DNA from: Straminergon stramineum
Taxonomy: Eukaryota > Streptophyta > Bryopsida > Hypnales > Calliergonaceae
DNA: 64,000 nt
NCBI GenBank assembly: GCA_963920665.1
Contig: OY987267.1
Span: 24,738,001 to 24,802,000, forward strand
Direction: 5' to 3'
The notes under the pieces are model-generated. The model was not told the DNA's origin. It saw only the letters and a program-made list of their open reading frames with translations, and did not search any database. Below, one piece after another: positions 16,876 to 39,217 of the stretch; position 1 is the stretch's first letter; each line of letters starts with the position of its first letter. Both the position numbers and the translations under genes were made by a program.

Positions 16876-18201
16876 TCCCACTTTGGGGAGTCATGTGGAG
16901 GTTAAGAGAAGATAGGGCAAATATGTAGATACATTGGAGGCTTTATAAAAGGCTAATGAACCTAAACTTGATAATGCTTTGACATGGTAGAGTTGTTGGG
17001 AAGTTACGAGAAGAATCAACAAGTAAATAGATTCAATGGAGGACTTCAAAGAGGCTGATGAACTAAATCCTAATTAGACTTTGATATTGTAGAGTTGAAG
17101 GGAGGATACAAGAATGATGGGCAAGTATGCAAAGGCATTGGAGGATTTGAATAAAGTTAATACTGTTTTGACATTGTAGAGTCTTGGAGATGCGAAGAAA
17201 GTGATTGGCAAGTATGAGGAGGCATTGGAGGAATTCAAAAAGGCTAATGAATTGAAGCCAAATGATGCTTTCACATTGCGGAGCCTTGGGGATGCTAAAA
17301 TAATGATGGCCAAGCATGAGGAGGCATTGGAGGACTTGAACAAGGCTAATGAACTTAAACCCAATTCTGCTTCCATATTGCAGAGTCGTGGGGATGTTAA
17401 GAGATTGATGGGCAAATATGGAGAGGCATTAGAGGACTTGAACAAGGCTAATGAACTAAAGCCAAATGATGCTTTCACATTGCAGAGTCTTGGGGATGTT
17501 AAGAGATTGATGGGCAAATATGGGGAGGCATTGAAGGACTTGAACAAGGCTAATGAACTTAAACCCAATTCTGCTTCCATATTACAGAGTCTTGGGGATG
17601 TTAAGAGAATGATGGGCAAATATGGGGAGGAATTGGAGGACTTGAACAAGGCTAATGAACTTAAACCCAATTCTGCTTCCATATTGCAGAGTCTTGGGGA
17701 TGTTAAGAGAAGGATGGGCAAGTATGAGGAGGCATTGGAGGACTTAAACAAGGCTAATGAACTAAAGCCAAATGATGCTTTCACATTGCAGAGTCTTGGG
17801 GATGTTAAGAGATTGATGGGCAAATATGAGGAGGCATTGGAGGACTTGAAGAAGGCTAATGAACTGAAGCCTAATGATGCCTTTATATTGCAAAGTCTTG
17901 GGGCTGTTAAGAGAATGATGGACAAATATGGGGAGGCATTGGAGGACTTGAACAAGGCTAATGAACTTAAACCCAATTCTACTTCCATATTACAGAGTCT
18001 TGGGGATGTTAAGAGATTGATGGGCAAATATGGGGAGGCATTGGAGGTCTTGAACAAGGCTAATGAACTAAAGCCAAATGATGCTTTCACATTGCGGAGT
18101 CTTGGGAATGTGAAGAAATTGATGGAGAAGTATGACAAGGCATTGGAGGACTAGAATAAGGCTAATGAACTTAAACCCAATTCTGCTTCCATATTGCAGA
18201 G
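16876..18201 (+). pseudogene. TPR array of the kinase gene, 5' part, interrupted by a transposon
   Basis: Tandem 102-bp units encode 34-residue tetratricopeptide repeats, a protein-protein interaction fold. From 17,195 about nine intact units share a core like GKYGEALEDLNKANELKPN and differ at a few residues, so the array expanded recently. Units between 16,880 and 17,180 are degenerate. Their stops fall where other units have the Gln codon of LQS: TTGTAG at 17,084-17,089 and 17,174-17,179 against TTGCAG elsewhere. A further stop (TAG for the usual TTG) is at 18,152-18,154. The array is cut at 18,201 by the giant transposon and resumes in frame at 39,210. The gene is therefore certainly non-functional as a full-length protein at this locus, although a truncated kinase could still be made. 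Confidence 0.85.
18194..18201. repeat. Target site duplication, left copy (TTGCAGAG)
   Basis: These eight bases directly precede the left end of the element. Their partner TTGTAGAG directly follows the right end. Both are the same position of a TPR unit (codons for LQS), and the two copies differ by one C/T change. Confidence 0.85.
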
Positions 18202-18212
18202 CATGGTTGTTC
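18202..18212 (+). repeat. Left terminal inverted repeat of the giant hAT element
   Basis: CATGGTTGTTC matches the reverse complement of 39,199-39,209 at 10 of 11 positions. The ends begin with CA, as is usual for hAT termini. Confidence 0.8.
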
Positions 18213-18386
18213 CGGTGGACAGTTCAACAACTCGACGAACACGACGTCCAACACGTCAAGTAGACCCTCTTGTCTGTCTAATAGAGTCAAACTTACCTTT
18301 GACTTTTAAAAAAAAATTTACCCTGCCCGTGAGGCCACCTGGATGCCATGTGGCAGACACATGTCTTCCACGTAGCATCCTAAAGG

Positions 18387-18457
18387 GGCGCATGCGGGTG
18401 TGGGCGACCACGGGTAGGGTGACTTCGGGTTCAGGCTGGTGGGCGACCGCGGGTAGC
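18387..18457 (-). promoter_or_regulatory. Left subterminal array of the GC-rich motif
   Basis: Three to four copies of the motif ACCCGCGGTCGCCC or close variants lie on the minus strand, so they point outward to the left end, 185-255 bp inside it. The right end has a mirror-image array. Subterminal repeats are known transposase binding sites in hAT elements such as Ac; that role is inferred here. Confidence 0.6.
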
Positions 18458-18525
18458 GAGTACGTGGCAAGCTCCGAAGCAAAGACACGAAGTGAGAACC
18501 CAAAGAGAAGTAACGCCCCACAATT

Positions 18526-18895
18526 ACCCGCGGTCGCCCCCAAGGACCCGCAGTCGCCTCCCAAGGGACCCGCAAGCGCCCCCAAAGACCCACAGTCGCC
18601 TCCCAAGGCACCCGCACGCGCCCCAAAGACCTGCAGTCGCCCCCCAAAGGACCTGCACGCGCCCCTGTAACCGCAGTCGCCCCCCAAAAGACCCGCACGC
18701 GCCCTTATACCCGAGGTCGCCCCTCCTAGGACTCGCACGCGCCCCTAGACCCGCAGTCGCCTCCTCGAACCCGAATGCGCCCTACCAGACTCGTAGTCGC
18801 TCCCCGAGATCCGTGCGCGCCCCCTGGAGACCATGGGTTCAACCGGTGGTTGCCCACCCACACGCGCCCCATGACTAACTCTCACCCGCGCTCGC
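18526..18895 (+). promoter_or_regulatory. GC-rich motif array upstream of the GW/WCH-RING gene
   Basis: About fifteen tandem copies of two related words, ACCCGCAGTCGCCCC and ACCCGCACGCGCCCC, spaced about 20 bp, read in the direction of the downstream gene. They end about 200 bp before its ATG and are followed by TATTTAT at 18,902. The array is very CpG-rich in an AT-rich genome. A promoter-like role is inferred from position and from its repetition before every gene of the element. Confidence 0.65.
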
Positions 18896-18954
18896 CCCAC
18901 CTATTTATCCACTCGCCCAAGACCTTTTGGGCACCTTTCATTGAGGCTTCTTGT

Positions 18955-18987
18955 CTTGTATCCTTTAGTGGCTACATGCGTGAACCT
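18955..18987 (+). promoter_or_regulatory. Shared leader motif, gene 1 copy
   Basis: TTTAGTGGCTACATGCGTGA resembles the end of the leader found before three other genes of the element (GAAGTGGCTGAATGCGTG at the kinase-like gene). It lies between the GC-rich array and the ATG. This copy is the most diverged. Confidence 0.4.
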
Positions 18988-19093
18988 TGACTATTTACTA
19001 TTTATTACATTCATCCACCCTTCTTAACTTAGTAGTTGTGGACCACCTAAACTCCCAAAAGAGTTTTTTGAGCCTTGGACACGACAATCATTG

Positions 19094-21586
19094 ATGGCCA
19101 CTGGAGTTAACAATGCCAGGGCATTGCCTATCTCCGCTACTGCACAGACCGCCAGGGCATTACGGAAGGCTGCCAAAGACAAACATCGCAAGCGTAGGGG
19201 CACTATTCATCGGAAGCGATTGCACGTGCTCAATAGTGAAGCCCACCTTGCTTTTAAGGGTTGGAATGAAGAACCAGAGCCTTGGACAATACAAACCTGT
19301 GAAGACTACATCGAGTGGTGCCACATCGGCAAGTTCTTTCCTTTATGGCGTCATCATTATAATCGGCACACCAATAAGGTCAACTTGAAGTACTGTGAGA
19401 ATCCAGCATTCCTTCAAAGATGCATTGAATTGTGGCAAGTCCTCTACAAAACCGCCTTTGTAGATAGGAACGAGGTCCCCCTCTTCCTTGCTAGAGGAGC
19501 ATATGCTGAGGTCGCTCTAAACAAAGAGGTTGATTGGAACACAATCAAGGGAAGTACGTATGTCACTCGTCCAGAGAGTGGTTTCATCCCAAAAGGAGTT
19601 CTAGCTTTTCCTGAGGGGGGACTCGGTCCTATTCGAAGTGCATACAAAACGCAAACCCCTGCCACTGAGGTTGACATTGAGGAGTCTGAAGAAGATGATG
19701 ACTCTGATGGTACGCGCATCTATAGGGTCATACGAATCGTGGAGCAATCTGTTTGCCCCAATGAGGTTCAAAATGAAGTTGTAGAAGAACCCGCGACATC
19801 CACGGGACAACGACCAAGGCAACCATCTAGAGTACGGCGTTCAACAACACGAGTGGGACCCGCATCGATTCCAACTATAGTTCCTAACCCATCATTGCCA
19901 ACATAGCGCACAAATGACGTCTTCGACTTCGGGCCCGATGAGGACACGGCTATGGAAGAAACTAACCGTGTTCCCATTTCTCCATCAACAATGGGCTCAA
20001 GCCATGACATTATGACTTTGGCAAAAGCTCTGGACCTCCTCAAGACCAAAGATGTTGAAATTTCTTCACTATAGAATGAAATGAGGAAATTGCGATGTGA
20101 GTGTAAACAAAAAAGTACACTCATCTCTCAACAAACTACAAAACTGCAAAGCCTCCGTGAGAAAGACCCTGACACTTTCACTTTGTCGGATATGGATGAC
20201 GCCTTTGTTGAGCAGAACCTCCAAAATGTGGACAAGGTTGTGGGGGACCTTACCAACCAGATCCTTCAGCGTTCTCCTCTTGCCAAGCGCACTAGACGCT
20301 CCCCCATCATTCCAAATACACTTCCTACTATTGTCACAAGATATACTACCAATGACACAATTGACCTCAATGGGACCCAAGACTCTCTTTCGTTTCCTGT
20401 GGTTCCATCAATTATTCAATTGGAGAAAGACCATGCACTTCAAGAAGAAAAGAAGATGCTTCGAAGAAAGTTGGCTGAGTTGACTACCACATACTACCAT
20501 TGGAAGGTCGTCTGCATTCTCTCCGTGGATAGATCCCAACAAGTTGCGAAGGAGCTAGAGAAAGTTTCTAGAAACTTTGTTGCAAATGCTCCTAAACGTG
20601 AGAATGGACTGACGTCATGGGCATTGTTGGAGGACATGTTTCCCAATAACATGTGCATGGTGGAATTGCCATAAAAGGAGGTCATAGATTGGAGCAAAAA
20701 TGGTTGGGACCACGAAAACCAAATGTCTAGCCACATAGAAGAGAAGAAACGAATGCTATTGTGGCCCAAGCTTGCACCTTTTGTTTTGGACCATACCAAA
20801 TGCCCCATATGTCTTGAACAATTTGGCTCCGAAGGGGGTTAGGCACTAGGATCTTGTGCACATATATACCACCCCCAATGTCTCATCACACAATGCTTGA
20901 TTAGACGACGTTGTGTGATTTGTTCAGCACCATTCCATGATTGCCTATATACCATGTTCAACTTGACGACCTACTTGCCTCCTTCTTGGGAACACACACG
21001 TGATACTACGGCTGACACAACCTTGTGGGGCCGAGATTTGGTTTGGAGTTGGCGAGAAGGACAACATGATCAAGAAAAAGGACCTGCTAGCTCGCAATTG
21101 AATTGGGAAACAGACCCAGACGAAATTGCCAGAGTTGCACCAAGGCTCATGGGAAAGGGGCCACAAAACGAAGGAAGGAGGGCATTCTTCTTCCAATGCC
21201 TTGGTGGATATTGGGACAAGACCTCCTCAACCTTCAAGTGGGGTCCTCATCCGCAACGACACCGTTGGAATTTAGAAGGACAAAGGGTGGCTAATCAAGA
21301 TGATAGTGCCTCCCTAGAAGACTTGACTAGTATGGCTTACCTGGACTCTACATACGGACCATATTACCAAAGTCAAGCACTTGACTACTTGTTGGAAGTA
21401 CATTCTCCGCAAACAACAAGGACCCTCCAAGCTCTACAGGACTCCAACGTGTTGCAATCAATTTTGAAGGCAGACGGACCAGCTTCACGAACCCGTGCAA
21501 AGCGAAAGCTAGGGGTTGGGGAAGCATCGACCTACAAAGAAGGTGAAGGAAGTGGCTCTCAAAACAACCCAAATGTAATTGACTAG
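19094..21586 (+). pseudogene. Cargo gene 1: GW/WCH-domain protein with coiled coil and RING finger (four in-frame stops)
   Basis: One frame of 831 codons runs without any frameshift from ATG 19,094 to 21,586, broken by stops at 19,904, 20,072, 20,672 and 20,840. Residues 54-152 carry the element-specific domain (FKGWNEEPEPW, EWCHIGKFFP, NKVNLKYC) shared with two other cargo genes. A basic segment precedes it and a coiled-coil-like region follows (about 320-520). A RING-H2-like finger lies at about residues 570-610 (20,801-20,923): CPIC, then SCAHIYHPQC, then RCVIC. RING fingers usually make E3 ubiquitin ligases; that activity is inferred. The stop at 20,840 falls inside the RING. The remaining ~220 residues are unrecognised. 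It is intronless, with a GC-rich array directly upstream. Without stop suppression this copy cannot make the full protein. Confidence 0.75.
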
Positions 21587-22830
21587 ACATTTGTAGGAAT
21601 CATGCAATTTAGCCTTACCTCCCATCATAATAGATGAGAAGTAAGGGTTAGGTTTTAGTTACACTATGTTTCTAGTTGTTTTGGCAAGTACGATGGAGTG
21701 GTTTAGGGTTTTCTTCTTTCATTCCACTTCTACAACTTCCTAGCATACCTATGTATGGCAATTCCATATGGCATTGATTTTTATTTAATACTACCTTTTT
21801 TTCCTCTCTACCAAAGCACCAATTTCTGAAATCATATTGAGAATGATCTTTTCCAGTTCTTCCCAAAATAGTTTGTATGAATCAAATCAACGAAGCTCTT
21901 AAAGTTTAACTTTTCAAATTAATTTCACTTGCATTGAGAAGAAAACTAGGTCACTACTCACTAGAGTGGAGCATCATTGTCCAATTGGATATTTCCTTTC
22001 ATATTCTTTAAAATCGTGAGGTTCTAATTATAGGAAGCTTTTCCTCTAAGCTTTCAAGATACTTGGCCAAAGAAGGAATAAAAGGGGTTCAAATACAACA
22101 TGCCCCTTTTCGTGGATGTTGACTTGTTGACTTCACATTACCATACCTTCAAAGGGTTCACCCTGTCCTTGGAGGTCAAAATTTTGATTCATAAAAAACA
22201 TGAGTAGGCCAACTTACATATCAAAACTACCTAATTCCTCAATATCCATTGTAATTTTCTTCAAATTACACTAAAGTTAGAATTCTAAAAAATCCTATAT
22301 ACAAGGAAGAACAATGTAGCAAATCACCCGAGACAAATAAGCCCAATAAATTTCCTCGATTAATATGGTATTTGGGGCATAGTCGGTTTTTCGTTCTCCA
22401 TTATTCATATGAAAATCATTAATACAAGTTGTACTGTAGATTTCATGATGACTTTCTCACAAAATACTATGTCAACTTTTACAGTCAAGAATCAAGAACT
22501 TCCCATCAATCCCATGTTCCTATTTGATTGTAATTATGTGCGAGAATCCCATTCCATTCATCATACCATCACCTTCTCCCAAAACATGAGAGAGACATAT
22601 TCATCCATATAGAAAAGTTGTAAGATCCCAAAATGGTGTGGCATTTTCTCCCTTCCATGCACACCACTAGTGTGCCCACACCAATTTAACTATTCTAGTA
22701 CGCACATTGCTTCAAGACACCATATACATTGTTTTATCTCAAAACATTGCATTTCTTTATAACACCAGGATAGGCAAAATACAAAATAATCATGGTGAAA
22801 GTATTTATCCTCATTGTATTCCTAGGTATT
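21587..22830. other. Intergenic stretch between convergent cargo genes 1 and 2
   Basis: AT-rich DNA lying 3' of both neighbouring genes, which converge here. No ORF of note and no GC-rich motif copies are seen, consistent with those arrays marking only 5' sides and element ends. Confidence 0.5.
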
Positions 22831-24294
22831 TTATTTTGTGTTGAGGTAGTCCTTCAAAATGGGCTCCAGACCCATTTGTTGTAATTTTGCATCAGACTTC
22901 CCTATGCTAGCTCTATTCCACTTATACCAATCCGAAAAAAAACGACTTTCTGCCCTCAAAGCTTCCAACTCCGATACCATCAATGGTAATCTTTGCTCAT
23001 GGAACTTCACCAACTTCTCAAGCGTTGCTACTTCTCCAGCAACACTACCATATGTTGAAGAAGAAGCTAAAAGCTCTACTTTTGAAACATGTTGGACGAC
23101 GGCCTCATAATATTCTTTTTTCTTCTCCATTATTTGAAGTTCTAGGCTTCGCCTTTCATTCTGTGCCCGCTGACGTTTGCGGACAAGGGTTTCGAGTTTT
23201 GATTCCCATATCAAATAATGGTCCATTTTATGCACCTTCCCACTCTTCATTTCCTTCAAATAAAAATCGCGATTTCTTTTGAAGGAATGGAAGCCCTTGT
23301 CATTCTCTTCGATGACGTTCGTTATGGCCTTCAACCGTTGCTTCAACACCTCTACGAAAGTGGGATTCATTTCTTGCTCCTTCAAACTTTTCAATTGCTC
23401 GTTCTTTGCACGCAATGCTAATTTTGCACTTTCTATTTTGGCAAGCAACATTGCCTCTTCATTTTCTGAATCGCTTCCTCCACCACTCCCATCACCCTCT
23501 CGCAAAACGGGGTCCACTCTCCTAGCCACCCCATCATCCATGCCTTTTTCATCCGTATCTTGTACTATGATGGGCTCTTGAGCTGATTGTCCACTTTGGT
23601 CGACTCCCACATCCATAGCCGGCCTAGATTCTTATATGGCAACCTCCTCCTCATCGCTGTGGAAAGAATGTCCATCGTATTCATGGGTGTGTAGATCAGA
23701 GCTAGAAGTCTCTGATCAAACCACGCTTTCATTGCGAACAAATGACTTCCCACGCTTCACCTTGGATAACATCTTCTTTACATCCACAGGTTCATCTGGT
23801 GGTAAAATTTTTGCAGTCTCTGGAATGATCGCAATAGGGACCTCCTTCAATGCTGACCAATCCACCTCCTTCTTCAACACATATTCAGCATACACCATTC
23901 TCACAAGAAAGAAACAGAAATTGTCGTTTCGGTAAGTTGAGTCCTCCAAATACAAGTGCTTCCACACCTCACAACATCTAAGTATGAAGCCCTCGTCCTT
24001 CGAGTATGCAAGATTTACTTTGTTTTGCTTCAGATGTTCTTTGTGCCGACACAAGGGAAATAATTTGTTGATGTGGCACCAATCCACGTATTTGCAAACG
24101 GTTTTGTAACTCCAAGGCTCAGGTTCATTTCTCCAACCTTTAAATGCCTTAATCTTTGGATGGATCAAAATGACCACACGCTTCTTGTGAATTTTACCGG
24201 ACCGTTTCCGACCCTTGTTGCGGATGAGCTTCATCTCTTGTCGTGTAAGGCGTTTGATTGTGGCAGGCGTCAATGGTGGGGGCTCATTCTCCAT
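22831..24294 (-). pseudogene. Cargo gene 2: GW/WCH-domain coiled-coil protein (two in-frame stops)
   Basis: A single minus-strand frame of 488 codons runs from ATG 24,294 to 22,831, interrupted by TGA at 23,718-23,716 and TAA at 23,634-23,632 and with no frameshift. The N-terminal domain (FKGWRNEPEPW, VDWCHINKLFP, KQNKVNLAY) closely matches those of cargo genes 1 and 4. The domain's last conserved block is KKEVDWSALK. An acidic linker follows, then long helical coiled-coil segments rich in Glu, Lys and Leu to the C terminus. Organisation matches intact cargo gene 4, so the two are paralogs. Function is unknown; the domain is not one I recognise. A GC-rich array lies upstream in the gene's orientation. 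Confidence 0.75.
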
Positions 24295-24530
24295 AGTGCT
24301 CAATCTATACGATCAATTCTACTCGGATACTATGCCAAATATACCAAGCCTAAAACCGTGGTTGTCCAAACTTAAATCTATTACCTCGTGGTAATTCACA
24401 TTTACAAATACATCAACATGAGCATTTACAATCACAATCAAGTTTCAAATAATTCGGTGTGATTTACAATCAATGGATGAAAGTGACATGAGGAGACATA
24501 GAATATCCTCCTCACAACACCCACCTCTCC

Positions 24531-24570
24531 TCTCAAGCCTGCAATTAGCCACTTCCAGGTGGATAAAAGA
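24531..24570 (-). promoter_or_regulatory. Shared leader motif, gene 2 copy
   Basis: On the minus strand, CTTTTATCCACCTGGAAGTG then GCTAATTGC. It aligns with the leaders of the kinase-like gene (26,921-26,961) and cargo gene 4 (31,479-31,518) over about 35 bp. It lies between the array and the ATG, about 240 bp before the latter. Confidence 0.6.
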
Positions 24571-24619
24571 CAAGGCGCAAAAGGGAAAGATGGGAGACTA
24601 CGGATTTAGGGTCTGATTT

Positions 24620-24990
24620 TGTACCCGCAGTCGCCTCAGGGCGAGCACGGCTCTGAATAGGGCGCGTGCGGGTCCAAGGGGGGGGGGGGGCGCGTGCAGG
24701 TCGGGAAGGCGACTGCGGGTCCAGGACCACCGCCAGCAACCGTGGGTGATGGCGACTACGGGTTTGGAGGCGACTGTGGGTACGGTGGGGCGACAACGGG
24801 TCTGGTGCGACCGCGGGTGAAGGGAAACCAAACTGGGGGTGCATGCGGGTCTGGGCGACCACGGGTCTGGAGCGACCGCGGGTGAGGGGAACGCATACTG
24901 GGGGCGCATGCAGGTCTGGGCGACCGCGGGTCTGGTGCAACCGCGACTGGGGGCGTGTGCGGGTCTGGGGTGACCGCGGGTCCCAAACCC
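24620..24990 (-). promoter_or_regulatory. GC-rich motif array upstream of cargo gene 2
   Basis: Roughly twelve copies of ACCCGCGGTCGCCC and ACCCGCACGCGCCC-like words on the minus strand, that is, in the direction of cargo gene 2. It ends shortly before the shared leader. A run of about a dozen G at 24,677-24,689 sits inside it. Confidence 0.65.
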
Positions 24991-25287
24991 CCGACCGCGA
25001 CGGCACATACCTTCACTGAATAGTGAAATTAGATTGACTGACCCCCAAATGAACCATGCAAAGAATTCATATTCAAACCCAAATGCATGCAAGTAGGTGA
25101 TGTGTCTGTACAATACTCAATATTTTGGGTCCAAACATGTACTTCACATTAAAAATAGTTTATACACTTGCATTGCTTTTCCAAAATGAGATGCTCATAA
25201 GGTGGCCAACATTACTATTCCCGCTAGAAAACTATTACATCAAATCCTATGAGAGGACAGAGTCCCGAAAGACGAATTCGGGTGGTT

Positions 25288-26835
25288 TCATGAACCATGG
25301 TTTACCCATGAGGAGGTCCACCACTTGCGCACATGTTGTCTTTTGTTAACATCAACATCAACTAGTTCACGTAACTTCATGGCAAAGTACCTTGATGACT
25401 CATGATTTCTAAATAAGTCCTTGTCGTATTCAACCATGTGTTCTATGTTCATGCGTTGGGTCAACTTTCCAATGGAATAAGAGTTGGACTTCACCGAATA
25501 TTTGTAGGTCGCTTTCATCACATCTAAACTCGTATCTGAACCCTCTGGCCCAAACAAATAGAACAACTCTGGAGCTGCCCACCAACGGCCCATCCTCTCA
25601 GCATCAAGTTTTTCCTGTTTTTCATATCCAAAATGTGAGGGAGCTCCTTCTTGAATACGACTTGCAATTCCCCAATCACAAATCCCAATGTTGATCTCTT
25701 CGTCTGAGAAGGGGGGATAATGCAACAATATGTTCACAAGTGACAAGTCATTGTGCAGCACCCCAGCATTGTGTACGAGACTTGTCACATAAACCAGGGC
25801 CCACGCCAACTTCGCCTTGTGTCTTCGAAAGAGGCTAATTTCTTTTTGTTGTTGGCCTGTAAGTTGCTTGACCAACTTGATTTCATGCCATTCCGCATGC
25901 GACACCACCTTCTCATTCAAATGAAGCAACTCTTTGAAATTACCACCATTCCACCACAAAGTGTATGCTTCCATTGTTTGGTCATGGACAGCTAGGAATT
26001 TAATAATGGCCGGATGATTCAACGGGCATACCAAAGCCTCCACTGACCATTCCACCCTTGCATTGCGTTTGTTCCTTTGCTTTGACAATTTCCCCACAAA
26101 ATGTACATGCGCTGGGATCGTGGACATCCCTTCAATGCGTACCTTGCGCACCTTTGCGTATCCTCCTTGACGGTCAAATCCAGTAAGTGGGACCACCTTG
26201 GCCTCTGAGTAGACCTACATGATACATGAACCACTATCTCTTGTAAATGCAGCCTTCAATGCATCCGTCTGCCACCCCATACCCCTAGCTTCAGACCTTG
26301 ACAATCTTTTTGCTGCAATTTGCCACCAATCCATCTTCTCACGGAACTCCTGGGCCCTATCCGTTTCTCCAAATCCAGGCACTATAGGTCGCAACTCAAG
26401 CATCAACTTCTTGGTGTTGAATATACCAGTTTGTAGGCAATTGCCAATCCACGTTTGCCATTGGTTGAAATACACTTCATCCACATTTGCATAGTCCGAA
26501 GATTCCTTGCATTTCCTTGTAATAAATTCCTCCAACTCATCCTTCAAGGATTGGATGCCTGCCTCTTTATTTCTCAAGTATTTCCTCTCCAAATATTGTA
26601 CACTTTTTTCCTCATACCATTGGAGACAAGCCTCATGCGCATAGGTCGTATATCGTGCTGGAGGATAGGTAGGGTCCTTATCGTGTACTGTCTTGGACTT
26701 CTTTGTCTTCGATGGTCCGGCACCCCTAATTACCTCCTTGGTAGTTATATCTACAACAAATGCTGCAGGATTATCAAGGTCCTTGTCCCAAGCCGATATC
26801 CAACCTGTACTACTTCCTTCCTTTGAAGTAGACAT
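25288..26835 (-). pseudogene. Cargo gene 3: kinase-like protein with variant catalytic motifs (one in-frame stop)
   Basis: A minus-strand frame of 516 codons runs from ATG 26,835 to 25,288, with a single TAG at 26,217-26,215 (codon 207). The N-terminal 200 residues are unrecognised and Trp-rich (QWQTWIGN, KMDWWQIAAKR). The C-terminal part is a protein-kinase fold: GGYAKVRKV as a glycine-loop remnant (about 224-232), HNDLSLVN at 361-368 in place of HRDLKxxN, CDWG at 386-389 in place of DFG, and WWAAPE at 418-423. The catalytic Asp, Asn and metal-binding Asp are kept, but HRD Arg and the catalytic-loop Lys are changed. It could be an atypical active kinase or a pseudokinase. It differs clearly from the host kinase nearby, so it was not captured from this locus. 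Confidence 0.7.
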
Positions 26836-26920
26836 GGTCCTCTTTTGAAAAACGAGGCGTTCTTGACTTGAACTTGGAGAGAAAAATGGGCAAAAACTTC
26901 CCCTTCTGAAATCACCTTGG

Positions 26921-30129: not shown

Positions 30130-30870
30130 GAGGCCCCTATTCAAATTCCTATGTTTAAAGATGGAAAATGAAATGACAAGGAGAAGGGCTTTCCCAAGTC
30201 TCCATTTTTAAAAAACACTTCCTATGTAGATCAAAAGATTTTTTCTTCATGCATCTCATGGTGTTAGTATTTTTTTTGTACATCGTTTCCCCCCAAAGGG
30301 AATGTCTCCTCCAAATGTACTCCCTCTAAAAATAAAAATAGGAAATGGTCATGTTGAATTTTACATGAGCACAAAGAAAAAAAAATTGTGAAGGAGAAGA
30401 GCTTCCCCAAGCCTCCATTTTTAAAAACCATTTCTTATGGAGATCAAAAGATTTTTTCTTCATGCATCTCATGGTGTTAGTATTTTTTTTGTACATCATT
30501 TATTCATTTCCCCCAAAGAGAAGGTCTCCTCCAAATGTACTCCCTCTAAAAATTAAAATAGGAAATGGTCATGTTGAATTTTACATGAGCATGCGGAAAA
30601 AGAAAATGTCAAGGAGAAGAGCTTTCCCAAGTCTCCATTTTTTAAAACCACTTTTGATGTAGATAAAAAGATTTTTTCTTCATGCATCCCACAGTTTCAG
30701 TATTTTATTTGTATATCGTTTCCCCCCACAAGGAAAGGTCTCCTTTTAATGTATTCCCTCCAAAAATTGAAGTAGGAAATGGTTATGTTGAATTTTACAT
30801 GACCACATGGATGGATGAAGAAGAAATAAAATGTTAGGAAGAAGGGCTTTTCCAAATCTCCACTTCGTCA
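30130..30870. repeat. Tandem array of ~220-bp units
   Basis: A block beginning AAGGAGAAG..CTTTCCCAAG and including TTTTTTCTTCATGCATC recurs at about 30,178, 30,393, 30,611 and 30,838, giving three units and a partial fourth at 215-227 bp spacing. Units are diverged and AT-rich, with no conserved frame. Confidence 0.75.
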
Positions 30871-31050
30871 ACGAATTCTCTTTCTTTATTACTTAATTAA
30901 CTTTTGATGACTTAGTCTTGAATGCCTCATTCTTAGGATTTTCTGGAGTTAATCCTCAGAAAAGGGGGGAGGGGTACTTGAAATGTTTGAACACCTTCCC
31001 TCCAATTTGTTAGGGCGGAAACTCAAACTCATGTTTTTTGGCGCCCCTGA

Positions 31051-31430
31051 CCCGCGGACACCCCTGACCCGAGGTCGCCCCTGACCCGAGGTCACCCCAT
31101 ACGGAGCCGCTCCCATCGTCATGAACTAGGGAAGACCTTTTGGAATCTGAGACCCGCGGTCGCCCCATTACCCGCGGTCGCCCAGGAAATGACCTGTGGT
31201 CGCCCTATATGCAGCCGCCCCCTGTACCCGCGGTCGCCCCATTACCCGAGGTCGCCTAGGAAAAGACCTGTGGTCGCCATATGCAACCGCCCCCCTATAC
31301 CCGCGGTCACCCTGCACTCGAGGTCTCCTTCCAGAAACTCTAATTTTTCCTGAATGGCAGTTTCTAAACAGTGGGACCCAGACCCGCGGTCGCCCAAGAC
31401 CCGCACGCGCCCTAGGCGACTTCGGGTATT
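31051..31430 (+). promoter_or_regulatory. GC-rich motif array upstream of cargo gene 4
   Basis: About fifteen copies of ACCCGCGGTCGCCC and variants on the + strand, ending about 200 bp before the ATG. TATTTAAG at 31,428-31,435 directly follows and is a plausible TATA box. The next feature is the shared leader. Confidence 0.7.
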
Positions 31431-31478
31431 TAAGGGGATACTGGATTCCCAAGTCGTCACTTCCTTCGTCGCACTGCG

Positions 31479-31518
31479 CCTTTCATCCGCCTTGAAGTGT
31501 TTGACTGCCGGTTCGTGG
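31479..31518 (+). promoter_or_regulatory. Shared leader motif, gene 4 copy
   Basis: CTTTCATCCGCCTTGAAGTG then TTTGACTGCCGGTTCGTGG. It lies about 45 bp after the TATA-like motif, so it probably falls in the first transcribed bases, and 114 bp before the ATG. Confidence 0.65.
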
Positions 31519-31631
31519 AGAGGAAGTTTGGGCATCTACACGTGTTGTGGCTTCCACGTTTACGAGTTCATTTCTTCGGTTATATTATCAACAAAAGTCT
31601 AGTTCTCTTTACGCTAGAGTGACACGACAAG

Positions 31632-33164
31632 ATGACGAAGAAGAAAGAAGATCACCATAGCAGGCAACGACGCGCCCTTCTTGACCCAGCGGCTAAGGCA
31701 TATCGGGGATGGCGTCATGTAAATTCCGATTGGACCTTGACAACTTGCAAGTTATTTGTGGATTGGTGCCATATCGACAAGCTCTTCCCTTACCATCGAC
31801 ACATTCACCATGTGAAGCAAAACCAAGCAAATCTTCATTACTGCAAGGATGATGCATTTGTCCAGAGATGTATTGAAGTGTACCGAGCATTGTACGGAAA
31901 GCGAAAAATTCCACGGAGCGAGGTCTCAATGGGCATATGCCAAATGGTATATGTAGAGTTACAATTGGGGAAAACGGTAGATTGGATGACCTTCAAGACA
32001 TCCAAGAATGTCACGCTTCTAGATACAAAAGACATTCCAAGAGCGGGTCCTTCAAATAATCCTCGGGATGGGCTAGGGCCCAAAAAGAACATTATAGAAG
32101 GAGTGGCAGATGAGGATTATGTTTGGTCAATGTCAACTGGAGAATCGAACTCCAATGAAGAGCCATTGCCTGAACCTAGGGACAGGATGGAAGATACATC
32201 AATAGAAGAAAACTTAGCATTGGTGGTATCCAAAGAAGGCAACATGCAACGGACCACACCAACGGATGGAGAACCTTTTATGTCTGTGGAACCGATAGGG
32301 GTCCGTCGTCCCGAAGATGACGAAGTGTTCCATTACGTGCAAGCTCGCTTGCAAGAAATTAATGAAGATAGGTTGGATGGGGAGAGTGAAGCCGAAGAAG
32401 AGATTCCTTTGACCTTGATGAATTTGCCTTCCATGGAAGGATTGCGTGAAATGGAACAAGAACATCAAGGTGTACTTGGAGAAGACAATAATCGGCGGAC
32501 GAAAGAATCCTATAAAGTGGAGTTGGAGATGCTTTTAAAGGATCTTGAAGAAAAAGAAAGGGAGTGTGAGACCATCGAGAAGCGAAGTGCACAAGAGATT
32601 CAGGTTGAGGATGTAGGCACTCTCAAAGAACTAATTCAAGATGGACAAACTCGTTTGGCAGCCCAACAAAGAGAAATGGAACAACTAGAAAAATTTTACC
32701 TCAAGTTCAATAAGGGAGAAGATGGAGGTTCCAGTTCAAATGTCAATCCTGTTATGGATGAACGACTTCAAACAATAATGGGAAAATGTAGGATGGAAGA
32801 AAACAACCTTGCCATTGAAAAAGGAGGTGTGGAAAAGGCAAGATCGACATTGAACCACTTGAAGGAGATGAAGGATGCAGATCCTATTGACCGGTCGTTG
32901 CAATCAGATTCATTGTCTGTGGATGTTGAAGATTTGTCATCCACTACGGAAATAGAGAAGTTGAAGATGAAGTTAGCGTCTGTGAAAAGATTGGAACAAA
33001 AGTTGGAAGAAAAGATGTCGTGGCCGAAGGCACACATCAGGTTCATGTCATTGTTCAAGAAGTGGTGGATCCAAAATAAGATGTGGAACCATGACCTGAC
33101 TCTTTTGAAGAGGGAAGAGAGAGTGGCAAGAGCCCAAATAGAATTGGAAAAGAAGAAAAGGTAG
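31632..33164 (+). CDS. Cargo gene 4: GW/WCH-domain coiled-coil protein, intact
   Basis: This is the only cargo gene with a fully open frame: 510 residues from ATG 31,632 to TAG 33,164, intronless. Residues 22-117 hold the element-specific domain: YRGWRHVNSDW, VDWCHIDKLFPYHRH, KQNQANLHYCKDD, QRCIEVYRALYG, then GKTVDWMTFK. His, Cys and Trp positions are shared with cargo genes 1 and 2. An acidic linker (about 150-270) is followed by long coiled-coil segments (about 285-365 and 400-510) rich in Glu and Lys. The protein is likely oligomeric; the N-terminal domain may bind DNA or metal, but I do not recognise it. Its openness beside decayed paralogs suggests either chance or recent selection. A TATA-like box and GC-rich array precede it. 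Confidence 0.85.
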   Translation: MTKKKEDHHSRQRRALLDPAAKAYRGWRHVNSDWTLTTCKLFVDWCHIDKLFPYHRHIHHVKQNQANLHYCKDDAFVQRCIEVYRALYGKRKIPRSEVSMGICQMVYVELQLGKTVDWMTFKTSKNVTLLDTKDIPRAGPSNNPRDGLGPKKNIIEGVADEDYVWSMSTGESNSNEEPLPEPRDRMEDTSIEENLALVVSKEGNMQRTTPTDGEPFMSVEPIGVRRPEDDEVFHYVQARLQEINEDRLDGESEAEEEIPLTLMNLPSMEGLREMEQEHQGVLGEDNNRRTKESYKVELEMLLKDLEEKERECETIEKRSAQEIQVEDVGTLKELIQDGQTRLAAQQREMEQLEKFYLKFNKGEDGGSSSNVNPVMDERLQTIMGKCRMEENNLAIEKGGVEKARSTLNHLKEMKDADPIDRSLQSDSLSVDVEDLSSTTEIEKLKMKLASVKRLEQKLEEKMSWPKAHIRFMSLFKKWWIQNKMWNHDLTLLKREERVARAQIELEKKKR

Positions 33165-34075
33165 AACAAGGGGAAATGGATGGAGTATAAATTAGGTGGC
33201 TCTTGTTTCTTTTATGACTATGTACTTCTTCCAAGATATATGAAGAAAAAGGCTTTGTCCTTATTTTTGTTGAAATACAAGAATGTTTATTTTTATTTTT
33301 TGTGTATGAAAATGTGATTGCATTTGGATCCAAACATTTGAATTTTTGACAAATTTTGATGATTTCAAGTTATGTGAATGTTAATTTCTTGTTAAATTTG
33401 TGTAGTGTTTTAAAAAAGAAAAGAATTCTAGTAACTTTGAGTCTACACAAAGAAGCCTCAATAAATTTAACCTACATCATCCATGAGAGTTTCAATATAA
33501 GTTTATATGGTTGCATTTTTTAGTATTTTAACATATGGTTTAATTTGAACATATTGTAAATGACAACATTCCCATGCCCTTCACCTCGTGAATGTATGGA
33601 CTCTTCTTGAGATTTATAATTTGGGAAAAAACATCCTAAAAAGGTACTCAAAAGAATACTTTTGGAATTGATAGAGAAATGGAAGTTATACATTTTGAGT
33701 TGTGGATTCCATGTATATGGTTTGATCAACGAATGTTGTCCCCCATTTTTCTTTTTAATTTGAAAGAGAAAGTTCTTAATTTTTTCCACATTTGAGTACA
33801 AGCTAATTCTATTTATTTTTTATTAAGTCTGTTGGAATGGATTTGAAATGAGTTTCCCTTCATGTGGTTGTTTAAAATAAAAATTGCATTCTTTAAGTCT
33901 ATGACCATACTCCCGAAAATCTTTTTTTGAAGTATCTATAAATACCACGTGAAACCCTTGGATAGTGTTTAGGGTTTAATAAAATCTCTATCTAAACTAG
34001 GATGACTTTCATCTAGAAACTTAGCGATGGAACGCTAACAGGATAACAAAAATGGCCTTGGGTCCTAAAGCGTAA
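33165..34075. other. Intergenic stretch between cargo gene 4 and the transposase array
   Basis: AT-rich DNA, presumably containing the 3' end of cargo gene 4. No ORF, repeat or GC-rich motif was identified. Confidence 0.4.
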
Positions 34076-34400
34076 GCGCGGTCGCCCTTCAAGTACCCGA
34101 AGTCGCCTCTTGAGACCCGCGGTCGCCCCCTTCTACCCGCAGTCGCACCCCCTGAACCCACAGTCGCCCCCCCTAGACCCGCAGTCGCCCCCCTCAGACC
34201 CGCAGTCGCCCCCCTTCCACCCGCACTCGCCCCCCTTACCCGCAGTCGCCTCTTTCTACCCGCAGTCGCCCCCCTTCCACCCGCACTCGCCCCCCTTACC
34301 CGCAGTCGCCTCTTTTTCGACCCGAAGTCGCCCCCCTTGGACCCGCAGTCGCCCTTTGATCTGCATGCACGCTCCTAGTGCAAACCGTCGACCCATAGTC
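34076..34400 (+). promoter_or_regulatory. GC-rich motif array upstream of the transposase gene
   Basis: About fifteen tandem copies of ACCCGCAGTCGCCCCCC-like words on the + strand, including a duplicated block (34,213-34,255 repeated at 34,271-34,313). It ends about 330 bp before the transposase ATG and about 95 bp before a TATA box. Confidence 0.7.
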
Positions 34401-34493
34401 ACCCACGAGGCGAGTGCGCCTGTTACGATGTCGCCCGTTTCCTGCACCCATTCTGGCTCTCAGGGGGCAACTTGCGGTGCTAGCAGGACGGCA

Positions 34494-34501
34494 GTATAAA
34501 G
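34494..34501 (+). promoter_or_regulatory. TATA box of the transposase gene
   Basis: GTATAAAG lies between the GC-rich array and the coding sequence. A start about 30 bp downstream would give a leader of about 200 bp. Confidence 0.5.
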
Positions 34502-34725
34502 CTGAAGGCCCGGACTGTGGTTTTCACCTTGCTTCAAGGATGAACTCTTGCCTTGAATCTTCGAAAGAGGCTTCTTGCGGATGTTTGGTTCTTTGGAGGG
34601 CAACGACTTGGTTTGTGTGGTTTAAAAGACCGTTCAAAGCAAGTGGCTTTGCCATTCTTTTTTCCAAATTAAGACTTTGATTCATATGATAATATTGTTT
34701 GAAGAACTCATAGGCCAGGAACGAT

Positions 34726-37700
34726 ATGGTTAGTCGGGGTGAGGGGAGGAGGACTACCATTAACGATACAAGGAGAGCCACGAAGGAGTGGGACCCTTGG
34801 TTGGTTGTAGACATTGACCGTCAATTTGCGGGAAACACACGAACATGTGTTTTCTATGGGTGGACCTCCGTATTTGTACGAAAGCGGGCATTTTGTCACT
34901 TTGGATTTGGCGGCAGGACTGCATCGAAGCGATGTAAGAAAATCCCATGGGCAGTATTGCAAAAGTTTAGGACTTGTGGTGGGGTTGTTCCGAAGGAAAT
35001 GAGCTTTGAACAAATGCATGAGGAGGTTCCAGAATTTGATGTTGTAGATGAGACTGTGGTTGAGCCTATATTGGAGGGGGATAGGGAGAGGTCAGAGGAG
35101 CCTAGTGCTACGAATGAACCAATGCTCCCTATTACAAATTCAGTAGATTCCACTCCTCAAACAATTTTGAGAAGGAGGAATAACCCTTCCATTTCTAGGC
35201 AAACTAGCATGGATGAGGCATTACAAAGTAGCACAAGAGCAAAGTTAGATACCATGTGGGCTTCCTTTTTTTATGAGGCTAGCATCGCGTTCAATGTTGC
35301 ACGCCATCCTGCCTTTATGAAAGCAGTGAAAGAGACAGCGGCATCAGGACTACGATACCAACTGCCCTCCTACAATGCTTTGCGTACAAGAATGATAGAG
35401 CCAAAGAAAGAAAGTGTTTCTAAAATGGTCACTGAGCGGACAAAGCACTCTATCGAAGTTTATGGAGCGACTATTTGTTCGGATGGTTGGTCTGATACTA
35501 ATAGCCATCCATTACTAAATTTAATGCTTGTGTGTCCTACGGGGGATGTGTTTCTTGGATCGGTGGACACCACGGGGGAGAAGAAGGACATTGCGTACAC
35601 AACCAATATGATGGCGCAATACATAGAAGAGGTTGGCCCCCAAAACATTGTCCAACTATGTACGGACAATGCTGTTGTCATGACGGGGACTTTGAAAGCG
35701 TTACAAGAGAAATATCCTCACATGTATACCCAAGGATGCACAGCACACATTTTGGACTTGCTTTTGGAAGACTGGGCAAAGGATGTCAAGGTGACGAGAA
35801 TAATACGACGTTGTACGCAGATAGTAAAGTAAATCAAGAGGTACCATTCCACATTGGCTCTCTTCCGAAAGTACTCCTCGGACAAGGCATTGCGAATGCC
35901 TTCTAAAACACGCTTTGCAGTGAACTTCCTCATGATATCACGTGTGGTGGAGTGCAAGTCAGCATTGATGCGAGTGATAATGGATGAGACATATGTGCAA
36001 TTTGAGGCTAGTTTGGAACGTCGCCAAAATGGAGATGTATTGAGTGCGCGAGCCCGTATAGCGCGGAATGACATTCATGCAGAATCTTTTTGGGTGGAGT
36101 GTGAGAATTTTTTGCACATGGTGGAGCCCGTCATTATTGCTCTCCGAGTGTTTGATGGGAAAGCCCCGGCAATGCCTAAGGCTTGGTTGGTTATGAAGAC
36201 TCTTCAAGAGCACGTGCGGAGCTTGAGAAACGAACCTTTTTTTCTGAATGATGAAACTGCAACGAAGTTTGAGACGCAATTCGAGGATCGTTGGAAATTG
36301 ATGCTCACATACCTACACTATGCAAGGGCACTCTTAAATCCTTTCTTGATTGAAGTAGGAACCCTTCGTAACAATGGTGTGGCCAAAAGAGCCTTAAATC
36401 GGGTGCTTCGAAAAATGAGCGAGTCATTGGGATTATCATACATGGAGGCATTGTAGGAGCTCACGCAGTTCGAAGAGAAGACAGGTCCTTTTGACCCATT
36501 AGAAGAGGCTCCTGATATTACACAATGTAAACTAATGCCTCATCAATGGTGGAATCTTGTGGGTGCTAATGTTCTCCCAAAAATTGCAATGAGAGTTCTA
36601 TCTTTGACGTGCTCAGCATCATCATGTGAAAGGAATTGGAGCATGTATTCGTTTGTGCACAATAAAGTGCGAAATCGCCTAACCACATCCAAGGCGGAAG
36701 CATTGGTGTATATCTACACCAACAGTAAACTTGAACGTGAGAAATGTGGACGCAATCCTGCAATGTTCTACGAAAAGTACCTTGTGGATGGAAATACCTC
36801 GGAAGAGAATGAGGAGCCATTAGGTACAGGATCATCAGGGGATGGCGACCCAGTTAGAAGGGCTCGAGCTAATGAGAACATTAGACTGGCAGAAGAGCAT
36901 CTATGTGGAAATATTTGGACAGGACCGATTCGTAGAGAAAAGAGTCCTCCACGGAGACACAACTATGGAAATACATTTACAGCTGAGAATAATACGTACT
37001 ACTCTGAGGAGGAGGAGATTCAACATGCACCGCGAAGGCCCCCGCAACCCTACGTCTCTGCTAGGGATAGGAATGTACCTCCTCCAATAAATTCATCACC
37101 AACTCGGGCAAGTAGTCCCGACAACCCCAATGAAGGCATACATAGTCCAATGCCCATAAGAGCTGAGGAAGCAAGATCTCCAAATGTCGTAGATCAGGGT
37201 TCTACAAGGGTAATGAACCTACGAAGTGCCGCTCGAGTTGCTGAGGTAAATGAAAGGCAAGAGGAGGCAACACCGCCAACACACGTCGAAGATGTTGTGC
37301 TTACAAGCGTTCCACTTTCTCCATTACGAAGCCGCTTAAGAACAGAAAATGTGGAATATGATTCAGACTTGCCCTTGCAAGCTGTTATGAACCGGAATCG
37401 TATTGTGCCCTTAAGTGGAGGAGGAAACGCAAACAATGCTAGGGCGACTAGGTCTATACCAACCCGTGCGACTAGGCCGCCCTTGCATAATAGTCCTCTT
37501 AGGACAGTTGATAATGAAGGCCATGCTTCAGCTCCACAACCCACTCAACCCTCCTCTATTTCTGGCCCTAGAGAATCATCCTTGCTCGTGCGTGAAGGCA
37601 CAAGAGGACAGAAAAAGCGATTGAGGAAGACGCAGGAGAGGCTACAAAGGAATCCCAAACGACAGAACCATGTTGTCCAAAGATTCATCATGGGTGAAGC

Positions 37701-38004
37701 CAATTCGAATCGAAACATCGGGCAATCCAGTAGAGGCGGACGACATCCTGCATCCAATCTTGATGGAACAAGAGATGCATTGAGGTTGACTAAACGATTG
37801 GTGCAAACTAGCGGCGATGGCGTCGTGGATACTGAAGTGCGGAACGTGAACTCAGAGGTAGAACATGAAGTGCAAAATGAACGAGTACGAAGGGAGGATG
37901 ACGAGAATGATAACCGTGATGATAATGATAGGGGGGAGGAGTCGGATGATGATTCTGACCCTGACGTTGATGAGGTGCCTAGTGATTACACATTTTCACC
38001 GTAA
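34726..38004 (+). pseudogene. hAT-superfamily transposase (two in-frame stops)
   Basis: A single frame of 1,093 codons carries stops at 35,830 (TAA) and 36,454 (TAG) and no frameshift. Residues 20-84 resemble a degenerate BED zinc finger (TCVFYGW ... RCKKIPWAVLQKF), with one expected Cys replaced. Residues 213-365 match a DUF659-type RNase H-like core with CSDGW (Asp253), CTDNA (Asp314) and GCTAH. The hATC dimerisation region lies at 604-675 with QWWNLVG and SSCERNWS (Glu635). The D, D and E of the catalytic triad are all present. A C-terminal extension of about 415 residues, low in complexity and ending in a strongly acidic tail, is unusual; most hAT transposases are 600-800 residues. It would cut and paste the element by binding its ends. 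Both stops lie before hATC, so this copy probably cannot mobilise itself. Confidence 0.85.
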
Positions 38005-38885
38005 CTTTATAAATATAGATTTAGAGGTAGTGAAGTGGTAATGTAATGCTTTTGCATAATTTTGGTGTGTTGAAGTTTTCTAGCTTAAGTTCATAGGCAA
38101 ATAGCCTATAGATGAGTTTTGTGTAGTATCTACTTTAGTATGAAAGCATGATAGTGTTAGAATTACAAAGTTTTGTTCAATGTCTTTAGTGTGGACTTCT
38201 ACAGGTATAGACGTGGAGATCTTAACAAAGTTCATGGAAGTACAATTGAAGTAGAAGTTCATTTATAAGATTGGGTCACTACTCTATTAGTGTGTACAAC
38301 TTATAAATACAGTAATACTAATTATCCTAACTTTTTTCTTGTTTTTGTATCTATTTTTGGTGTAATTATTTTATCCAATTGCAATATTGGCTTCTACACT
38401 TCAATAGGAGTAGAAAATTTGAATTAGAAATTCCCAACCATATGTAATAAAAACATGTAGAACTCGGAGGCTCCTATGAATGAGTGAATGACCACAGAAT
38501 GTGAAATACTTAATTTAAGGCTTAGGAGAATGCAATGGCACATGGAAACTGAAGGATCCTAAATCGTGAGCAAGATTGAAATGGTTGTTATATCCATGTT
38601 TGCAATTGCAACGGCACACGAGGTTGCTCTTAACCTTTAACGGATGGACTAGTGAGTATGAAAATCATCTCCAATGGAACTCTGTGATGTGATGTACTTG
38701 CCTTTCCCCTCACAAAAATACTCATTTCCGGTATGAGGACTCAGTAAGATCTCTCTTTGGGGAATTGGGACCCAATTTTCAAAGATGGACAATTGCATTT
38801 ATGTCATATATTAGAAGTTCTTATCATCCACGGAACAAAAGAAATTCCTTACGTATGGGATAAAGCCAAGATCGCCCTTTTCCTT
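38005..38885. other. 3' flank of the transposase gene
   Basis: AT-rich DNA between the transposase stop and the right subterminal array. Nothing recognisable was found. Confidence 0.4.
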
Positions 38886-39000
38886 ACACCCGCGGTCGCC
38901 TTTACACCCTCAGTCGCCTTGAGTTGGACCCGTAGTCGCCCTGGATTTTGGACCCGCAGTCGCCCCACCTTACCCGCACGCGCCCCACCCGCAGTCGCCT
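38886..39000 (+). promoter_or_regulatory. Right subterminal array of the GC-rich motif
   Basis: Six to seven copies of ACCCGCGGTCGCC, ACCCGCAGTCGCC and ACCCGCACGCGCC on the + strand, pointing outward to the right end, 209-323 bp inside it. It mirrors the left subterminal array in distance and orientation. Confidence 0.65.
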
Positions 39001-39198
39001 ATGGTGACGTGGTCAAAGCTTTCCACGTCACTGTTGCCAACCCGCCACGTAAGATAAAATTTTTGGCTGCCCTGCCCGAAAACCCTAAACCCTAATTTCG
39101 CGCTCGTCAAATTTGTCTCGTATATGCAACACTCGTCTTATACGACATGCGACATCAAACGAACAACTCGACACCCAAACCCGAAAACACGTTCGACA

Positions 39199-39209
39199 GA
39201 ACAACTATG
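39199..39209 (-). repeat. Right terminal inverted repeat of the giant hAT element
   Basis: GAACAACTATG on the + strand is the inverse of the left end CATGGTTGTTC with one mismatch. Confidence 0.8.
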
Positions 39210-39217
39210 TTGTAGAG
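39210..39217. repeat. Target site duplication, right copy (TTGTAGAG)
   Basis: It matches the left copy at seven of eight bases. The difference converts the CAG of the TPR unit into TAG. The two copies were identical at insertion, so this base changed afterwards. Confidence 0.85.

What the first reader, a model, noticed from the sequence alone, without database searches (positions are those of the whole stretch)
18194..39217. A 21-kb gene-carrying hAT transposon that split a TPR gene
The sequence shows inverted ends, an 8-bp target duplication and exact restoration of the TPR reading frame when the element is removed, and it encodes a hAT transposase. hAT elements normally span a few kilobases; this one carries four further intronless genes. 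This points to a class of giant, gene-loaded hAT elements in plants that I do not know to be described.
Basis: partly seen in the sequence, partly recalled or inferred. Interest (0 to 1): 0.95.

Follow-up and report, generated by a model that had tools for sequence, protein, structure and literature searches.

The report
Giant gene-carrying hAT transposon family
A plant, probably a moss, carries many copies of an unusually large cut-and-paste jumping gene with several extra genes and repeated control-like sequences, and a distantly related family in the same genome carries related extra genes, which suggests that these genes serve the transposon rather than being random passengers.

Summary
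Window 18202-39209 (21,008 bp) has short terminal inverted repeats, an 8-bp target duplication with one mismatch, and a hAT transposase gene. The genome has 338 near-matches to the 30-bp left end (control 0) and about 145 loci with the transposase or cargo gene C or D, from capped lists. Of 20 family-1 copies with both ends read, 14 have an exact 8-bp duplication, 5 one mismatch, 1 none. Eleven bounded copies measure 20.2-21.8 kb. A second family (15.0-15.5 kb, transposase 42-47% identical) carries homologues of cargo A and C; third codon positions are near saturation while first and second are conserved. Cargo: A has a RING finger, B and D share A's N-domain, C is a kinase. Co-oriented motif arrays lie upstream of all five genes; B, C and D share a 40-bp upstream block. 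My reading is an autonomous-type giant hAT with its own regulatory genes, perhaps VANC-like; that mechanism is untested.

The parts
18202..39209 (+). giant hAT element, 21,008 bp (family 1)
   Evidence: ends, duplication and copies elsewhere
18194..18201 (.). target site duplication, left copy TTGCAGAG
39210..39217 (.). target site duplication, right copy TTGTAGAG (1 mismatch)
18202..18212 (+). left terminal inverted repeat CATGGTTGTTC
39199..39209 (-). right terminal inverted repeat CATAGTTGTTC (most other copies read have CAGGGTTGTTC)
18513..18896 (+). motif array (ACCCGCRGTCGCC / ACCCGCACGCGCC) at the left end, upstream of gene A
19094..21586 (+). gene A: shared N-domain, coiled coil, RING finger, conserved C-terminus; 830 aa and unbroken in one fetched copy, 4 internal stops here
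22831..24294 (-). gene B: shared N-domain plus coiled coil; 487 aa in unbroken copies, 2 internal stops here
24609..24980 (-). motif array upstream of gene B, in B's orientation
24541..24580 (-). 40-bp block shared with the upstream regions of C and D
25288..26835 (-). gene C: protein kinase domain; 529 aa open in another copy, 1 internal stop here
26932..26971 (-). 40-bp block shared with the upstream regions of B and D
26980..27176 (-). motif array upstream of gene C, in C's orientation
28663..29621 (+). long motif array (units of about 100 and 200 bp)
31051..31429 (+). motif array upstream of gene D
31480..31518 (+). 40-bp block shared with the upstream regions of B and C
31632..33164 (+). 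gene D: shared N-domain plus coiled coil, 510 aa, unbroken here
34081..34377 (+). motif array upstream of the transposase, with a TATA-like box at about 34495 (the only one of the five genes with such a box by the pattern used)
34726..38004 (+). hAT transposase gene (DUF659, Dimer_Tnp_hAT, long C-terminal tail), about 1,092 codons, 2 in-frame stops here
38889..39002 (+). motif array at the right end

Best explanation
The stretch is one copy of a multi-copy family of giant hAT transposons. SHOWN from sequence: units of 20-22 kb between short terminal inverted repeats, flanked by 8-bp target duplications, carry a hAT transposase gene and four further genes (A, RING-finger protein; B and D, sharing A's N-domain; C, kinase); homologues of A and C travel with a diverged hAT transposase in a second 15-kb family. 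INFERRED: the extra genes are element functions, not captured passengers, and work as a self-regulating set. Co-oriented GC-rich motif arrays upstream of each gene act as shared promoter or binding platforms, and the A/B/D domain family is the likeliest reader of them, keeping the element's genes expressed against host silencing. RING protein A and kinase C would modify or destroy host or element proteins. The transposase moves complete copies and, in trans, short derivatives such as the 778-bp one. This copy inserted into a TPR-repeat gene and has since decayed.
For: Ends and duplications: (20 family-1 copies with both ends read: 14 exact, 5 with one mismatch, 1 none). Lengths: 11 bounded copies of 20,190-21,846 bp (interiors not read). 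Copy number: 338 left-end matches, control 0. Linkage, from capped lists: gene D has the transposase downstream (median 3.1 kb) in 71 of 84 scored copies; C is linked to the transposase or D in 63 of 82; 27 of 40 left ends have the transposase and 31 of 40 have C, D or T on the expected side and strand. Second family: 15,031-bp element nested in another copy, exact duplication AAGCCTGC, homologues of A, C and T; of 6 further family-2 loci 3 were bounded, all 3 with exact duplications, 15.1-15.5 kb; A2 followed by T2 in 73 of 78. Selection: codon-position identities between one copy of each family A .54/.61/.35, C .47/.54/.32, T .57/.67/.35. Regulatory layout: 88 motif cores inside against 2 in 43 kb outside; more co-oriented than opposed cores at 28 of 29 gene starts of other copies; block shared by B, C and D. 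A transposase frame of 1,094-1,096 codons without a stop in the matched part in 4 of 111 rows.
Against: No expression, methylation, binding or transposition data. Within family 1 the fetched copies differ almost neutrally in A (nonsynonymous/synonymous relative to null 1.24), B (0.83), C (0.74) and T (0.82); only D (0.50) looks constrained, so selection rests on the between-family comparison. The shared N-domain model (pLDDT 87) matches no PDB or BFVD fold, so DNA binding is a guess. A's RING scores are below Pfam's gathering cut-off. 26 of 40 listed right ends and 13 of 40 left ends had no listed transposase at the expected distance; the lists are capped, so I cannot say how many of these copies lack it. 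One copy (E4) has no matching duplication. In three fetched copies (E2, E5, E6) the missing part coincides with a run of 200 N, so they are not proof of deletion derivatives. B and D were not found as separate genes in the one family-2 copy read, and that copy's motifs are few upstream of A (3) and C (1). The TATA pattern was found upstream of T only, 1 of 5 genes in the window.
Confidence: 0.6

Rival explanations
1. The extra genes are passengers: host genes captured once into an ordinary hAT and carried along without a role in the element's life.
For: Gene capture by DNA transposons is common (recalled); within family 1 the fetched copies' cargo evolves nearly neutrally except D; kinase and RING domains are common in hosts (recalled; one search shows the domains).
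Against: Homologues of A and C travel with a transposase that has diverged to 42-47% identity, with third codon positions near saturation and first and second positions conserved; searches with A and D gave 13 and 6 protein hits, none named as a host gene (host genes were not searched for separately); genes share motif arrays and, for B, C and D, a 40-bp upstream block.
Confidence: 0.15
2. The motif arrays are only transposase-binding subterminal repeats; the internal ones are by-products of tandem duplication and have no regulatory role.
For: Arrays lie at both ends (18.5-18.9 kb and 38.9-39.0 kb) and hAT transposases are known to bind subterminal repeats (recalled; e.g. Ac, Hermes).
Against: Internal arrays sit upstream of gene starts and follow the gene's direction on both strands, in this copy and at 28 of 29 gene starts of other copies; the one family-2 copy read has a different motif upstream of A, C and T.
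Confidence: 0.25
3. The 21-kb unit is an accidental composite of separate nested elements between two hAT ends.
For: Nesting occurs in this genome (3.6-kb family member in E1, 15-kb element in E8).
Against: No full internal ends in the window copy; gap-free collinear copies of the whole unit at other sites, E3 with an exact duplication of its own; cargo linkage in most scored copies.
Confidence: 0.02

Closest known systems
hAT superfamily (Ac/Ds, Hermes, plant DUF659-type hATs)
   Same: hAT C-terminal dimerisation domain, DUF659, short terminal inverted repeats beginning CA, 8-bp target duplication, repeats near the ends, a MITE-like short form
   Different: 15-22 kb instead of a few kb (typical size recalled); extra genes; motif arrays upstream of every gene; transposase of about 1,092 aa with a long tail
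VANDAL MULEs with VANC anti-silencing proteins (Arabidopsis; PMC5735166, passages read)
   Same: plant DNA transposon with accessory genes; short motifs at high density in the same orientation in non-coding regions; motif differs between families
   Different: different superfamily (Mutator, recalled, versus hAT); VANC homology was not searched directly and no Pfam hit suggested it; array binding not tested here
Giant KDZ, EnSpm and Sola-1 elements of Ectocarpus and algae (PMC12477816, passages read)
   Same: large cut-and-paste elements, generally over 10 kb and up to 30 kb, with accessory genes, in organisms with a long haploid stage
   Different: other superfamilies; hAT is 0.05% of that genome in the paper's table
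ToxhAT/ToxTA of fungi (PMC12506042, passages read)
   Same: 14-kb element with cargo, first named hAT
   Different: that paper finds a TA duplication, calls it likely non-autonomous Tc1/mariner; single copy
Tgmt*, 20.5-kb CACTA element of soybean (PMC2613891, abstract read)
   Same: about the same length, subterminal repeated motifs
   Different: CACTA family; one large gene with transposase and motif-binding functions, no set of extra genes in the abstract

Membership tests
hAT superfamily | transposase with hAT C-terminal dimerisation domain | tested here: met
   Dimer_Tnp_hAT 9.4e-7 in the window copy, 2e-7 in another copy; Hermes 4e-4
hAT superfamily | 8-bp target site duplication | tested here: met
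   window 7 of 8 bases; 20 family-1 copies: 14 exact, 5 one mismatch, 1 none; family 2: 4 of 4 bounded exact, 3 further loci not bounded
hAT superfamily | short terminal inverted repeats | tested here: met
   CATGGTTGTTC with CATAGTTGTTC or CAGGGTTGTTC
hAT superfamily | DDE catalytic residues in an unbroken transposase | not tested
   catalytic residues not mapped; frames of 1,094-1,096 codons without a stop in the matched part in 4 of 111 rows
hAT superfamily | transposition observed | not testable with these tools
   no resequencing or expression data
VANDAL/VANC-type anti-silencing system | Mutator-type transposase | tested here: not met
   the transposase is hAT
VANDAL/VANC-type anti-silencing system | VANC homologue | tested here: inconclusive
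   no Pfam hit suggested one; VANC sequences were not compared
VANDAL/VANC-type anti-silencing system | co-oriented dense short motifs in non-coding regions of the element | tested here: met
VANDAL/VANC-type anti-silencing system | element protein binds the motif and removes methylation | not testable with these tools
   no binding or methylation data
Starship, Polinton, Helitron or Teratorn giant elements | tyrosine recombinase, polymerase B, Rep/Hel or herpesvirus genes | tested here: not met
   Pfam scans of ten frames of the window element and of four proteins from other copies gave none of these; frames under 120 aa were not scanned

The most novel reading that the evidence does not exclude
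A lineage of giant hAT transposons that has kept, through at least two strongly diverged families, its own regulatory apparatus: a new domain family (A/B/D) that reads co-oriented motif arrays, plus a RING protein and a kinase that act on host silencing. This would be an anti-silencing and gene-control system evolved independently of VANDAL/VANC, in a haploid-dominant plant.
Probability: 0.35. Interest if true: 0.92.

Novelty: new variant of a known kind. Interest (0 to 1): 0.8.

Why it matters
hAT elements are among the best studied cut-and-paste transposons and are generally taken to be small and simple (recalled). A lineage of 15-22 kb hATs with conserved RING and kinase genes and a novel domain family would show that this superfamily, too, has giant gene-rich forms, and gives a testable case of a transposon carrying its own gene-control system. 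The motif differs between the two families while the layout is similar, so binding specificity and its co-evolution can be tested directly. It also bears on why giant transposons appear in organisms with long haploid phases, a link drawn in PMC12477816 (passages).

Tried and rejected
Composite or nested origin: rejected. Viral origin of the shared domain: no BFVD fold match, no support. Fold of the full A protein: poor model (pLDDT 49), not used. Fold search of the N-domain: nothing significant. Locus-specific empty site: the joined flanks match uninterrupted TPR arrays elsewhere (listed full-length matches about 76-89%), but the unit is a 102-bp tandem repeat, so this is consistent with insertion and not a proof for this locus. 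Within-family selection test: mostly neutral. Deletion derivatives: I first took E2 and E6 (and a missing part of E5) for deletions; the missing parts coincide with runs of 200 N, so I withdraw that; only the 778-bp E7 and the 3.6-kb member nested in E1 are gap-free short forms. Naming the organism: not possible; a land-plant marker family (PF01698) was asked for five times and never answered. Allelic or sister-species empty sites: no relatives are held (note and later). Literature searches; none listed a giant hAT in plants, but only listings were seen for most papers, and most subscription papers and preprints are not held.
Full report
What was checked. The window lies on contig 5 of an unnamed 326-Mb genome in 59 contigs. 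The claimed element 18202-39209 is there: ends CATGGTTGTTC and CATAGTTGTTC (inverted), flanked by TTGCAGAG and TTGTAGAG, 7 of 8 bases alike. The joined flanks keep the 102-bp TPR repeat in frame, but an in-frame TAG stands 47 bp before the insertion point. G+C is 45% inside and 36% in the left flank. No second pair of ends lies inside when 19-20 bases are asked for with up to 3 mismatches; two 11-base near-matches (25561, 29879) lack the rest of the end.

Genes. The transposase frame (34726-38004) carries DUF659 (6.1e-36) and the hAT dimerisation domain (9.4e-7) and two in-frame stops; a copy elsewhere matches Hermes chains at 4e-4. Four further genes are each one long frame: A (19094-21586), B (24294-22831, minus), C (26835-25288, minus) and D (31632-33164). 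In this copy A has 4, B 2, C 1 and D 0 internal stops. Unbroken versions exist in other copies: A 830 aa, B 487 aa, C 529 aa. A has a RING finger (zf-RING_2 5.8e-5, zf-RING_11 5.5e-5, both under the gathering score; PDB RING finger protein 24 at 1.4e-5) and C a protein kinase domain (1.6e-11, above the cut-off). A, B and D share an N-terminal domain with invariant W, C and H positions in a 14-sequence alignment; its model is confident (pLDDT 87, pTM 0.84) but matches no PDB or viral fold.

Copies. A 30-base left-end pattern with up to 3 mismatches has 179 forward and 159 reverse sites; the reversed control has 0. The DNA searches listed 45 left-end matches, 40 of them nearly full length and at least 95% identical and 5 pieces of 25-40 bases (744 candidates, 40 scored), and 40 right-end matches, all at least 96% (829 candidates, 40 scored). 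I fetched eight elements. E3 and E4 are gap-free collinear copies of 21.2 and 20.7 kb; long aligned pieces are mostly 90-97% identical, with the arrays least alike. E1 holds a 3.6-kb family member in gene D. E2, E5 and E6 miss parts, but exactly where the assembly has 200 N, so their lengths say nothing about deletions. E7 is 778 bp with both ends only. E8 holds a 15-kb element in gene A, and its right end was not reached. Most copies end in ..GAACAACCCTG, four bases beyond the matched query. Duplications read by eye are exact in E1, E2, E3, E6 (whose first base is T) and E7, have one mismatch in E5, and fail in E4; the member nested in E1 is exact. Of 14 further loci, 11 had both ends in the fetched stretch: 8 exact duplications and 3 with one mismatch; in 3 an end was not found, in one of them beside a run of N. 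The 11 lengths are 20,190 to 21,846 bp (interiors not read, so gaps inside are possible). With the window copy this makes 20 copies with both ends read: 14 exact, 5 one mismatch, 1 none.

Linkage. With positions copied (111 transposase rows of 763 candidates; 84 rows of 1420, gene D; 82 rows of 790, gene C), gene D has the transposase downstream on the same strand in 71 of 84 (median 3,076 bp; 68 at 2.4-3.6 kb), C is linked to T or D in 63 of 82, 27 of 40 left ends have T and 31 of 40 have C, D or T, and 14 of 40 right ends have T within 8 kb. All lists are capped at the best candidates, so missing links cannot be read as absence. The C, D and T hits fall into 145 clusters (6-kb tolerance, so some splits or merges are possible), 98 of which hold two or three of the genes. 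Four of 111 transposase rows show an open frame of 1,094-1,096 codons with no stop in the matched part, three of them again; that column needs care, as a few rows list such a frame together with a stop.

A second family. The 15,031-bp element in E8 begins CATGGTTGTCATA, ends ..TATGACAACCCTG, and is flanked by AAGCCTGC twice. It encodes homologues of C (minus strand), A and the transposase; B and D give only the N-domain of A. Its transposase fragment finds 150 rows: 75 at 89% or more, 17 at 57-72% (further families) and 58 family-1 rows at 43-45%. Of six family-2 loci tested, right ends were found in all six and left ends in three; these three have exact duplications and 15,111-15,508 bp. A2 is followed by T2 within 16 kb in 73 of 78 scored copies (median 8.4 kb); a diverged A (53-65%) is followed by a transposase in 5 of 11. 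Between one copy of each family, third codon positions agree in 32-35% and first and second positions in 47-67% for A, C and T: long purifying selection on cargo and transposase alike. Inside family 1 the differences between 5-7 fetched copies per gene are nearly neutral except in D, as expected for copies that decay after insertion. Homologues of A (34-64% over 95% or more of the query), D (37-55% over 94% or more) and T (up to 62%) occur in public contigs, nearly all unnamed. Named T hits: one contig of a Bacilli MAG (57%, 3.2 kb, in my view misbinned), the moss Ceratodon purpureus (39%), angiosperms at 26-30%. A moss is therefore likely, but this is an inference.

Motif arrays. Cores GTCGCC/ACGCGCC number 88 in the element and 2 in the 43 kb outside. 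Arrays lie upstream of all five genes in the direction of the gene, on both strands, and at the right end. In other copies 28 of 29 gene starts have more co-oriented than opposed cores within 900 bp upstream; the exception is B in E6, where a run of N stands in place of that region. The family-2 copy has another motif (GTCCGCGCCC): dense upstream of T (10 sites in 700 bp), sparse upstream of A (3) and C (1), present at the right end, and dense at 6.9-7.4 kb with no gene recognised after it. TATA-like boxes by a strict pattern: in the window only upstream of T; in family 2 between motif and start for A and T, not for C. B, C and D of the window share a block of about 40 bp between array and start codon (B-C score 50 and C-D 43 against null maxima of 25 and 24 in 500 shuffles each; B-D 26, reached by 3 of 500; pairs with A reached by 9-45 of 500, pairs of B, C and D with T by 40-385).

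Reading. The element is a giant autonomous-type hAT whose extra genes A and C are old members of its gene set. The layout resembles VANDAL elements, where VANC proteins bind motifs arrayed in the same orientation in non-coding regions (PMC5735166, passages); membership in that family fails because the transposase is hAT. A self-regulatory or anti-silencing role of A/B/D, and a host-directed role of the RING protein and kinase, is inference. Known giant elements in the papers seen belong to other superfamilies (PMC12477816, passages; PMC6431247, passages, in which 'hAT' occurs 0 times as a word), and ToxhAT has been reassigned to Tc1/mariner (PMC12506042, passages). My searches of the held library listed no giant hAT in plants.

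Noticed in passing
window 28271-28348: Near-perfect 38-bp inverted repeat with a 2-bp spacer inside the element (95% complementary).
   Followed up: no
window 30074-30807: Three to four tandem copies of a unit of about 215 bp between the long array and gene D.
   Followed up: no
window 14663-16183, 16861-18201 and 39218-39458: A kinase reading frame of 506 aa lies upstream of the TPR repeat array that the element split; similar TPR arrays are frequent on the same contig.
   Followed up: partly
L055 (G000:C5:78953-79730): 778-bp derivative with both family-1 ends, motif array and exact 8-bp duplication: a MITE-like form.
   Followed up: partly
G000 transposase rows at 57-72% identity to family 2 and A rows at 53-65%: At least one further diverged family of the same lineage, not fetched.
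   Followed up: no
window 39190-39209 and E1 right end (L041): The window copy and E1 share the right end ..CTATG, while the other bounded copies read end in ..CCCTG or, once..CCCTA: a subfamily or end conversion.
   Followed up: no
G000:C9:20433763-20433792 (within L089): A family-1 left end lies where a family-2 left end was expected and not found: possible nesting of one family in the other.
   Followed up: no
L043, L051, L053, L066, L088: Runs of N (200 bases in L043, L051, L053, L066) break several fetched copies, apparently assembly gaps or withheld stretches.
   Followed up: partly
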